64,000 bases of DNA from Chloroflexota bacterium. GTDB taxonomy: Bacteria > Chloroflexota > Anaerolineae > UBA4142. The notes beneath the pieces were generated by a model. It searched no databases, had not been told where the DNA came from, and saw only the letters and a program-made list of their open reading frames with translations. This document shows, piece after piece, positions 19,426-46,438 of this stretch. The first letter of the stretch is position 1; each line of letters starts with the position of its first letter. The stretch spans positions 62,001 through 126,000 of the forward strand of contig JACRBM010000038.1 of assembly GCA_016219275.1 (NCBI GenBank). Direction: 5' to 3'. The position numbers and the translations under genes are program-made.

Positions 19426-19800
19426 TCAGTCGAGCGGTTGTCTCCCGGCGTAGCCGGAATCGAGCGCATGCCAGAATTCGATGGCGGTCTCGCCGCGTTT
19501 CCAACATAGGTAGACTAGTTCCCCATCGCGGTACGCGGGGAAATCCACCAAGCCCGCGTCAATATCCTTGAGTTCGCAACCCAGGTCTTTGAACGCGTTG
19601 AGGCAATCGTTGAATTGTTTCATCGCAACGACGTACTCGCTCGAATGTTTATTGCCGCCATTCCCGTCCGCGTGCGCGAGCACGGATTGAAGCGACGCGC
19701 CTTGGGCGATCAGCAGATCGCGCAGACGGATGATCTCGTCGAGCAAGGCATTGATTCGCGGAAGCAGTGCGGTGGCTTCTGCGTGCGTAAATACTTTCAA
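19426..19800 (-). CDS. DUF2203 family protein (124 aa)
   Basis: A small soluble protein with a helical N-terminal half (TRAEATALLPRINALL-like opening; residues 1-45) and a C-terminal half with the family hallmark GLVDFPAYRDGELVYLCWK followed by WHALDSGYAGRQPL. Its function is unknown. It has only a distant GAGG as ribosome site. It lies between the DUF2283 and selenoperoxiredoxin genes on the same strand. Confidence 0.85.
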   Translation of the reverse strand: MKVFTHAEATALLPRINALLDEIIRLRDLLIAQGASLQSVLAHADGNGGNKHSSEYVVAMKQFNDCLNAFKDLGCELKDIDAGLVDFPAYRDGELVYLCWKRGETAIEFWHALDSGYAGRQPLD

Positions 19801-19933: not shown

Positions 19934-20422
19934 TTACCCGAGTTTTCGCAATTCCGCCAAGAGGTCGGCGTTGTCGGGCAAGATGCCGGGTTCGTACAGT
20001 TTCACCCAACGAATAATACCTTGCTTGTCTACGATGAAAATCGAGCGGTCAGGACGACCCAGCTTTGGATTGAACACGCCGTACTTTTGGGCGACCTCGC
20101 CGTGGGGCCAGAAATCGGCGACGAGCGGATACGAGATGCCGCCCAACGCTTTGCCCCACGCCTGCTTGGAAAAGATGGGGTCACTGCTGATAGCCAGAAC
20201 CTGGCTATGCAATCCTTCGAATTCGGCGCGTTGCGCTTCGTAGGAAGGAATTTGCTTGTCTCAGGTCGCGGTGAACGCGAACGTGTGAAACGCCAGCACG
20301 ACATTTTTGCGCCCGCGATAGTCGCTCAGTTTGATTTCGAGACGAGCAACCTCGGGCTTGGTGATGACGCCGGGCAACGTAAAGTCCGGGGCGACTTCAC
20401 CGACGCGAAGCAGATCGGACAT
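19934..20422 (-). CDS. Selenocysteine-containing peroxiredoxin (162 aa, Sec54)
   Basis: A thiol-peroxidase of the AhpC/TSA fold with an in-frame TGA (20263-20261) read as selenocysteine. The ATG at 20422 has AAGGAG at 7 nt. Upstream of the TGA lies VAPDFTLPG and [14 protein letters not shown]; the TGA then falls exactly where the peroxidatic Cys sits after FTxx in this fold. The same frame continues with [23 protein letters not shown], and the Arg-containing [17 protein letters not shown] to a normal stop, giving the usual family length. A stem (TCCTTC with GAAGGA) follows the TGA and could be a SECIS, but is not strong. Selenocysteine peroxiredoxins are known from other anaerobes. The alternative, a nonsense mutation, is less likely because nothing else is damaged. 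Confidence 0.85.
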
Positions 20423-20470
20423 AGTTGACTCCTTGTAAATGGAACAGCGATCGGTTGACACTCTGGCTCG

Positions 20471-20499
20471 ATTGTACCAGTACTGACGCGGGTTGTCAA
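20471..20499 (-). promoter_or_regulatory. Sigma70 promoter of the selenoperoxiredoxin gene
   Basis: On the minus strand TTGACA (20499-20494), a 17-bp spacer and TACAAT (20476-20471), about 50 nt upstream of the start codon. A near-consensus promoter, so the gene is probably well expressed. Confidence 0.8.
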
Positions 20500-20582
20500 A
20501 CAAAATGCTTTCAGATATAATCATCGTGTCAAAAACCTCACGGTTCAAGATGATGAATTCTTGTCCAATTCTTCACGTGTGA

Positions 20583-45232: not shown

Positions 45233-46438
45233 TCATTTGGGTAGCGTAAACACAAAACGACTGCCTTTGCCCGCTTCGCTTTCCGCGCGAATCGTTCCGC
45301 CGTGCGTCTCGACAATGCCGCGCGCGATCGCGAGACCCAGCCCCGCGCCGCTTCCATCGCGCGCGCGCGATTTTTCGCCGCGATAGAACGGCTCGAAAAT
45401 GTGCGGGAGGTCGTTCGGCGCGATGCCTTCGCCGGTGTCCGCGATTTCGACCTGGACACACTGGTCGCGCACGCGCGCACACACCGAAACCGCGCCACCC
45501 GCCGGCGTATGTCGAATCGCGTTCTGCAACAGATTCGACAACACGCGTTGCATCTTGAGCGCGTTGATCGGTACGGGATCAACCGACGCATCCACTTGAC
45601 CTGACAGCGTGACTTGCTTGAGCGCGGCTTGCGCTTGCATCGTCTCCAACGTGTCCGAAATTAAATCGCGCAACGAACCAGGTTCCGTGGTCCAATTCAG
45701 CGCGCCCGCGTCGAGTTGCGTCAACTCGAACAGATCGTCCACCAAACGCGACAAACTCTGAATCTCGTTTTGCGCGAGCATCAAATAATGCTTGACCGTT
45801 TCCGGTTCCGTCACCACGCCGTCGTTGATCGCCTCGATCATCGCGCGGAGCGAGGTGAGCGGCGTGCGTAAATCGTGCGATACCGCGGCGACGAGCGCGC
45901 GCCGCGCGAGTTCGAGTTCCTTTTCGCGCGCCTGCATCGCGCCGAGTTGTTGCGCCATGCGATTGAACGCGTCCGCAACCTGCTCGACTTCATCGCGCGA
46001 TTGCACGCGCGCGCGCGTCGTCCAATCGCCCGCCGCGATGTTCTCGGCGCTGTCCGCGAGCTGCGCGAGACTGCCGGTGATCGAGCGCGCCATCAATTGA
46101 CCGAATCCCAGCGCGACAAACGTCGCGAAAAAAAGGAGCACGATCAACAACCCACTGTCGTGCGCGGAGAGAAACATCGGCATCGAAGCGAACAAGATGT
46201 TGAGGAGCGTCACGCCAAGACCCAGCGCGAATGTCAGCGCGATCTTTAATTGCACACTCGCGATACCCAGGCGCAAGCCAACGCGGTACGCCGCCCAGCC
46301 GAGCGCGAGCGACACCGTTTCGGAAACGAGAAAAATTTGCGCGAGAAAAATCAAATCGTCGCGCGACGCGCCGAGCCAAAACGCCGCGAGCGCCAGCGCG
46401 CCGACCGGCGCGAGAATCCACAAGACGACGAACAGCAT
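45233..46438 (-). CDS. Sensor histidine kinase (401 aa)
   Basis: A membrane sensor of a two-component system. About four helices lie in residues 1-125. A HAMP linker follows (SITGSLAQLADSAENIAAGDW). The dimerisation and phosphorylation helix contains AAVSHDLRTPLTSLRAM (His about residue 187). The ATPase domain has MQRVLSNLLQNAIRHTP (N box), VEIADTGEGIAPNDLPHIFE (G1) and SGAGLGLAIARGIVETHGG (G2). No obvious periplasmic sensor domain is present, so it may sense the membrane or redox state. It is in the same operon as its response regulator and 16 nt upstream of the oxidase gene. Confidence 0.93.
   Translation of the reverse strand: MLFVVLWILAPVGALALAAFWLGASRDDLIFLAQIFLVSETVSLALGWAAYRVGLRLGIASVQLKIALTFALGLGVTLLNILFASMPMFLSAHDSGLLIVLLFFATFVALGFGQLMARSITGSLAQLADSAENIAAGDWTTRARVQSRDEVEQVADAFNRMAQQLGAMQAREKELELARRALVAAVSHDLRTPLTSLRAMIEAINDGVVTEPETVKHYLMLAQNEIQSLSRLVDDLFELTQLDAGALNWTTEPGSLRDLISDTLETMQAQAALKQVTLSGQVDASVDPVPINALKMQRVLSNLLQNAIRHTPAGGAVSVCARVRDQCVQVEIADTGEGIAPNDLPHIFEPFYRGEKSRARDGSGAGLGLAIARGIVETHGGTIRAESEAGKGSRFVFTLPK

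What the first reader, a model, noticed from the sequence alone, without database searches (positions are those of the whole stretch)
19934..20422. Peroxiredoxin with selenocysteine at the peroxidatic position
An in-frame TGA replaces the catalytic Cys after FTxx, and both sides of the frame are intact, giving a normal-length enzyme with a consensus promoter and ribosome site. Selenocysteine peroxiredoxins are known in a few anaerobes. A conventional gene caller would report two broken ORFs.
Basis: partly seen in the sequence, partly recalled or inferred. Interest (0 to 1): 0.7.

Follow-up and report, generated by a model that had tools for sequence, protein, structure and literature searches.

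The report
Selenocysteine peroxiredoxin in Chloroflexota bacterium
A bacterium of the phylum Chloroflexota reads a UGA stop signal as the rare selenium-containing amino acid selenocysteine, at the catalytic position of a peroxide-destroying enzyme; the kind of enzyme is known, but this lineage-wide branch looks little described.

Summary
On the minus strand (20422 to 19934) a 162-residue peroxiredoxin has an in-frame TGA (20263-20261) at its peroxidatic position (FTATU). The genome holds selA, selB, tRNA-Sec (anticodon UCA) and selD, and its selD also carries an active-site TGA. All 18 distinct family members read from the same order (window included) have TGA at exactly this codon and no other in-frame stop. 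Purifying selection is equally strong on both sides of it. A stem-loop of shared geometry, with compensatory changes, follows the TGA. Its apical loop in the window lacks the G expected of a textbook bacterial SECIS.

The protein has the AhpE fold (M. tuberculosis AhpE is best by sequence and by structure). It differs from AhpE in having Sec, a Prx6-type active-site His (18 of 18), and no cysteine at all. A sister branch of Sec-peroxiredoxins is often fused to a glutaredoxin.

It is a new member of a known kind (TxxU peroxiredoxins). It most likely works as a peroxidase through a Sec selenolate/selenenic-acid cycle and is reduced by an external thiol. The reductant is not shown.

The parts
19934..20422 (-). 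Sec-peroxiredoxin gene, 162 aa with TGA read as Sec; AhpC-TSA domain residues 7-139
   Evidence: (PF00578, 103.7 bits against cut-off 26)
20261..20263 (-). in-frame TGA = Sec54, peroxidatic position of FTATU
20212..20250 (-). SECIS-like stem-loop just after the TGA (arms 20250-20233 and 20229-20212; lower helix and inner GCGC helix form in the window copy, with some mismatches; apical loop about 28-31 nt after the TGA)
20429..20434 (-). ribosome-binding site AAGGAG, 6 nt before ATG
   Evidence: read from the sequence
20471..20499 (-). sigma-70-like promoter TTGACA-17-TACAAT with TG before the second hexamer
   Evidence: a consensus match, not proof
19426..19800 (-). downstream DUF2203 gene, next to the Sec-Prx gene in several orthologous loci too (not shown to be functionally linked)

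Best explanation
This is a working selenoprotein gene. SelB, helped by the stem-loop after the UGA, brings Sec-tRNA-Sec to codon 54, giving a 162-residue AhpE-fold peroxiredoxin. Sec54 attacks a peroxide (H2O2, organic peroxide or peroxynitrite) and becomes a selenenic acid. As the protein has no cysteine, it has no internal resolving thiol, so an outside thiol must regenerate it: a glutaredoxin or mycoredoxin-type protein, thioredoxin, a low-molecular-weight thiol or sulfide. Shown: the gene, the conserved TGA, the machinery, selection through the TGA, the predicted fold. Inferred: Sec insertion in vivo, peroxidase activity, and the reductant.
For: Machinery: selA 585 bits, selB 335 bits over cut-off, tRNA-Sec 70.6 bits with anticodon TCA, selD 366 bits, itself with one in-frame TGA in CAGU. 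Conservation: TGA at the same codon in 18 distinct family-1 sequences, the 17 relatives at 63-82% identity; Cys at that column in further homologues. Selection: pN/pS 0.34 before and 0.31 after the TGA. RNA: fold z against synonymous resampling is -1.3 to -1.9 in windows starting 0-16 codons after the TGA in family 1, -1.1 to -2.4 in family 2, and mostly near zero elsewhere; covariation score 0.208 against 0.099 shuffled (0/500), and above all slid versions; family 2 0.251 against 0.134. Enzyme: AhpC-TSA 103.7 bits; U54 and R126 invariant, T51 kept; AF2 model pLDDT 97.4, best matches all M. tuberculosis AhpE, TM 0.88-0.95. TGA is an ordinary stop elsewhere: 20 of 42 long open frames in the window end in TGA.
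Against: The window's apical loop (AAC, or CAACG) has no G in its first two positions, against the bSECIS model in PMC13188914, and stem pairs 14-52 and 21-45 among others are mismatched. The window copy has T in place of the Pro of PxxxT/SxxC (the only T in that set) and S where its orthologues have Cys at column 83, so some relaxation is possible. Family 2's RNAalifold consensus was empty. No protein evidence is available.
Confidence: 0.95

Rival explanations
1. A nonsense mutation or sequencing error in a Cys-peroxiredoxin: a pseudogene or artefact.
For: The window copy has two unusual substitutions (P to T in the PxxxT motif, Cys to Ser at column 83).
Against: The same TGA stands in 17 distinct orthologues from independent genome assemblies; selection is equally strong downstream of it; the Sec machinery is complete.
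Confidence: 0.01
2. TGA is read as Cys or Trp through a changed genetic code or a suppressor, not as Sec.
For: Cys sits at this position in homologues.
Against: 20 of 42 long open frames in the window end in TGA, tRNA-Sec(UCA) with selA/B/D is present, and selD carries the expected active-site TGA.
Confidence: 0.02
3. A variant of the best explanation: the Sec-Prx is reduced by sulfide or a low-molecular-weight (seleno)thiol through its pocket His, as proposed for Prx6-type enzymes, not by a redoxin protein.
For: All 18 family-1 members have His at the place where AhpE-type enzymes have Tyr or Phe (PMC12697902, ties this His to reactivity with HS-). The window protein has no Cys. The Grx-fused sister proteins have F or Y there.
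Against: Only correlation; the chemistry of a selenenic acid differs; a Grx-TrxR fusion in the genome offers a protein reductant.
Confidence: 0.3
4. A variant of the best explanation: the physiological reductant is the Grx domain of the genome's 409-residue Grx-thioredoxin reductase fusion (L148 514-1743, minus), giving an NADPH chain.
For: It is the only match in the genome to the Grx domain fused to the sister Sec-Prx branch (35% identity); M. tuberculosis AhpE is reduced by the Grx-like Mrx1 (PMC4360819).
Against: The genes lie on different contigs (C33 and C38) and no interaction was tested; thioredoxins were not surveyed.
Confidence: 0.35

Closest known systems
Sec-containing peroxiredoxin PrxU (Eubacterium acidaminophilum type; NF040737)
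   Same: TxxU at the peroxidatic position, AhpC-TSA fold, bacterial Sec decoding
   Different: Only 71 bits against the equivalog cut-off of 270; the window protein is shorter than the model (162 against 233) and AhpE-like
M. tuberculosis AhpE (1-Cys peroxiredoxin, PDB 1xxu, 4x0x, 5id2)
   Same: Best relative by sequence (E about 2e-31) and by structure (TM 0.88-0.95, 38-39% identity); needs an outside reductant
   Different: Sec for Cys; His for the aromatic residue; no Cys elsewhere; Thr for the motif Pro
Prx6-type peroxiredoxins
   Same: Active-site His one residue before the motif Pro position; no resolving Cys
   Different: No long C-terminal domain (162 aa); not among the best matches listed
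TxxU peroxiredoxin selenoprotein family of the surveys (PMC1794560, PMC5029168, PMC13188914)
   Same: Same motif and Pfam family
   Different: Anaerolineae members and the Grx-fused branch are not named in the passages searched

Membership tests
bacterial selenoprotein | in-frame UGA at a redox position that is Cys in homologues and UGA in relatives | tested here: met
bacterial selenoprotein | selA, selB, selC, selD in the same genome | tested here: met
bacterial selenoprotein | SECIS stem-loop 16-37 nt after UGA with G in the first two apical-loop positions | tested here: inconclusive
   stem and distance met with covariation; loop G absent in the window
bacterial selenoprotein | Sec found in the protein | not testable with these tools
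   needs 75Se or mass spectrometry
peroxiredoxin (AhpC/TSA) | Pfam AhpC-TSA over gathering score and peroxiredoxin fold | tested here: met
peroxiredoxin (AhpC/TSA) | PxxxT/SxxC(U) motif and catalytic Arg | tested here: inconclusive
   T51, U54, R126 met; Pro is Thr in the window
AhpE-type peroxiredoxin | closest solved relative by sequence and fold is AhpE | tested here: met
AhpE-type peroxiredoxin | Tyr or Phe in place of the Prx6 active-site His (PMC12697902) | tested here: not met
   His in 18 of 18 family-1 members
Prx6-type peroxiredoxin | active-site His | tested here: met
Prx6-type peroxiredoxin | C-terminal extension (about 220 aa in all; recalled knowledge) | tested here: not met
   162 aa
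PrxU equivalog NF040737 | score over curated cut-off 270 | tested here: not met
   71.2 bits

The most novel reading that the evidence does not exclude
In Chloroflexota, Sec-peroxiredoxins of AhpE fold come in two designs: a stand-alone form with a Prx6-like pocket His, reduced by sulfide, selenide or another small thiol without a redoxin protein (the window's branch), and a form with an aromatic residue there that carries its own glutaredoxin domain. His and Grx fusion did not occur together in the sequences read.
Probability: 0.25. Interest if true: 0.55.

Novelty: new member of a known kind. Interest (0 to 1): 0.38.

Why it matters
Gene callers split or drop this enzyme, so the peroxide defence of a group of uncultured Chloroflexota is under-recorded. 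The branch is also a good test case for what Sec changes in a peroxiredoxin. In these alignments the motif Pro is invariant in Cys forms but variable in Sec forms, and the pocket His goes with the stand-alone form. That makes the questions of reductant choice and of why Sec is kept directly testable.

Tried and rejected
Rfam scans of the locus and of the whole window gave no RNA family. The plasmid collection holds only matches under 60% identity; its best five are annotated as ordinary peroxiredoxin or redoxin genes. RNAalifold found no consensus for family 2, though single folds and pair counts support the stem. Five relatives with a Sec-Prx lack a detected selA; four of them hold selB over the cut-off and three hold tRNA-Sec over the cut-off, and the fifth (G003) is 70% complete with neither, so this is best read as gaps in the assemblies. 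Rejected: pseudogene or sequencing error, and a changed genetic code (see rivals).

Full report
The observation. The finding's coordinates are exact, but the gene runs on the minus strand (ATG 20422, stop ending at 19934). It reads [18 protein letters not shown]...[24 protein letters not shown]... with one TGA at 20263-20261, codon 54 of 162. Under the standard code the gene falls into two ORFs of 95 and 92 aa.

The machinery. The genome (6.16 Mb, 107 contigs, 97.9% complete) has selA (585 bits), selB (335 bits), selD (366 bits), all over curated cut-offs, and a tRNA-Sec with anticodon TCA, 70.6 bits, found by two programs. selD itself has an in-frame TGA in its active-site motif (CAGU), so at least two genes in this genome use UGA in this way. 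TGA is an ordinary stop elsewhere: it ends 20 of 42 long open frames in the window.

Conservation. In 99 related genomes every relative over about 55% identity has a TGA inside. After reading through, 18 distinct sequences including the window ('family 1', FTATU and variants) and 17 sequences of a second set ('family 2', WTPVU) have the TGA at exactly the peroxidatic column and no other in-frame stop. More distant homologues in Actinomycetota and in other Chloroflexota have Cys. On a maximum-likelihood tree the Sec/Cys label needs only 5 changes against 25.6 in shuffles, and family 1 is one clade with support 100/100, all Sec. pN/pS is 0.34 before and 0.31 after the TGA, averaged over 153 pairs. 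So translation goes on through this codon.

The RNA element. With synonymous resampling as the null, folding is stronger than expected directly after the TGA in both families (mean z -1.3 to -1.9 and -1.1 to -2.4 in windows starting 0 to 16 codons after it) and mostly near zero elsewhere; one window at -12 codons in family 1 reached -1.2. All pairs lie on one stem whose column numbers add up to 66, the same in both families. On this stem family 1 has 18 cells with both sides changed (6.1 in shuffles) and a covariation score of 0.208 (0.099 in shuffles, at most 0.110 when slid); family 2 has 27 (12.5) and 0.251 (0.134; at most 0.158 when slid). The sequences are related, so the shuffle counts are not probabilities; the slid controls keep relatedness. 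The published bacterial model asks for a loop 16-37 nt after UGA with a G in its first two positions (PMC13188914). Many family-2 members fit it, with a G as first loop base. The window fits the distance, but its loop is AAC or CAACG without that G, and some pairs are mismatched. I call it SECIS-like.

The enzyme. Pfam AhpC-TSA matches at 103.7 bits. The best solved relatives are all M. tuberculosis AhpE, by sequence and by structure search with a confident model (pLDDT 97.4; TM 0.88-0.95). The catalytic Thr and Arg are kept. Three features set it apart. The peroxidatic residue is Sec. The residue before the motif Pro position is His in all 18 family-1 members, as in Prx6-type enzymes and unlike the Tyr or Phe of AhpE-type enzymes (PMC12697902). 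The window's protein has no cysteine, whereas its orthologues have one at alignment column 83 (ISCDP). Hence no internal resolving residue exists and an outside reductant is needed.

The reductant. Family 2 offers a hint: 12 of the 17 family-2 proteins go on into a C-terminal glutaredoxin-like domain (one tested with Pfam, PF00462 at 52.8 bits). All fused ones have Phe or Tyr in place of the His, and the three family-2 proteins with His are unfused. In the window's genome the only match to that Grx domain is the N-terminal part of a 409-residue Grx-thioredoxin reductase fusion, named so from its sequence motifs. M. tuberculosis AhpE is reduced by the Grx-like protein Mrx1 (PMC4360819). So a Grx-TrxR chain is one candidate and sulfide or a small thiol through the His is the other; these data do not decide between them.

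Novelty. Sec-peroxiredoxins with TxxU are established: 12 in the 2006 survey (PMC1794560), 91 in 78 organisms in 2016 (PMC5029168), listed in the 2026 review (PMC13188914). The protein is not a PrxU equivalog (71 bits against 270). I found no open paper that describes an AhpE-type Sec branch in Anaerolineae or the Sec-Prx-Grx fusion, but subscription papers and supplements were not searched. The placing in Chloroflexota rests on the titles of the nearest named relatives (Anaerolineales, Anaerolineae, Chloroflexi). I rate it a new member of a known kind.

Noticed in passing
L038, L039, L041, L043, L044, L046, L047, L131-L135: Related Sec-peroxiredoxins (WTPVU) run on into a C-terminal glutaredoxin-like domain (PF00462, 52.8 bits in L132), 12 of 17 read; all have Phe or Tyr where the stand-alone family has His.
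   Followed up: partly
alignment: The Pro of PxxxT/SxxC is invariant in 40 Cys forms but is Val, Ala or Thr in several Sec forms, as if Sec relaxed the need for it.
   Followed up: partly
L148 514-1743 (minus), G000 contig C33: A 409-residue glutaredoxin-thioredoxin reductase fusion protein (by its motifs) in the window's genome.
   Followed up: no
window 20471-20521: Overlapping divergent promoter-like sites, 20499-20471 (minus, 11/12) and 20493-20521 (plus, 11/12), between the Sec-Prx gene and an ABC transport operon.
   Followed up: no
L022-L037 and others: Gene order around the family-1 gene is partly kept: folB-like and cobO-like genes upstream in many relatives, DUF2203 and a lipB-like gene downstream (names from sequence by eye); the window has DUF2203, and no lipB-like gene was found next to it.
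   Followed up: partly
window 45949-46038 (minus): ARAGORN reports a tRNA with a four-base anticodon (gcaa); Rfam finds no tRNA there at the gathering score, so probably a false call or a tRNA relic.
   Followed up: partly
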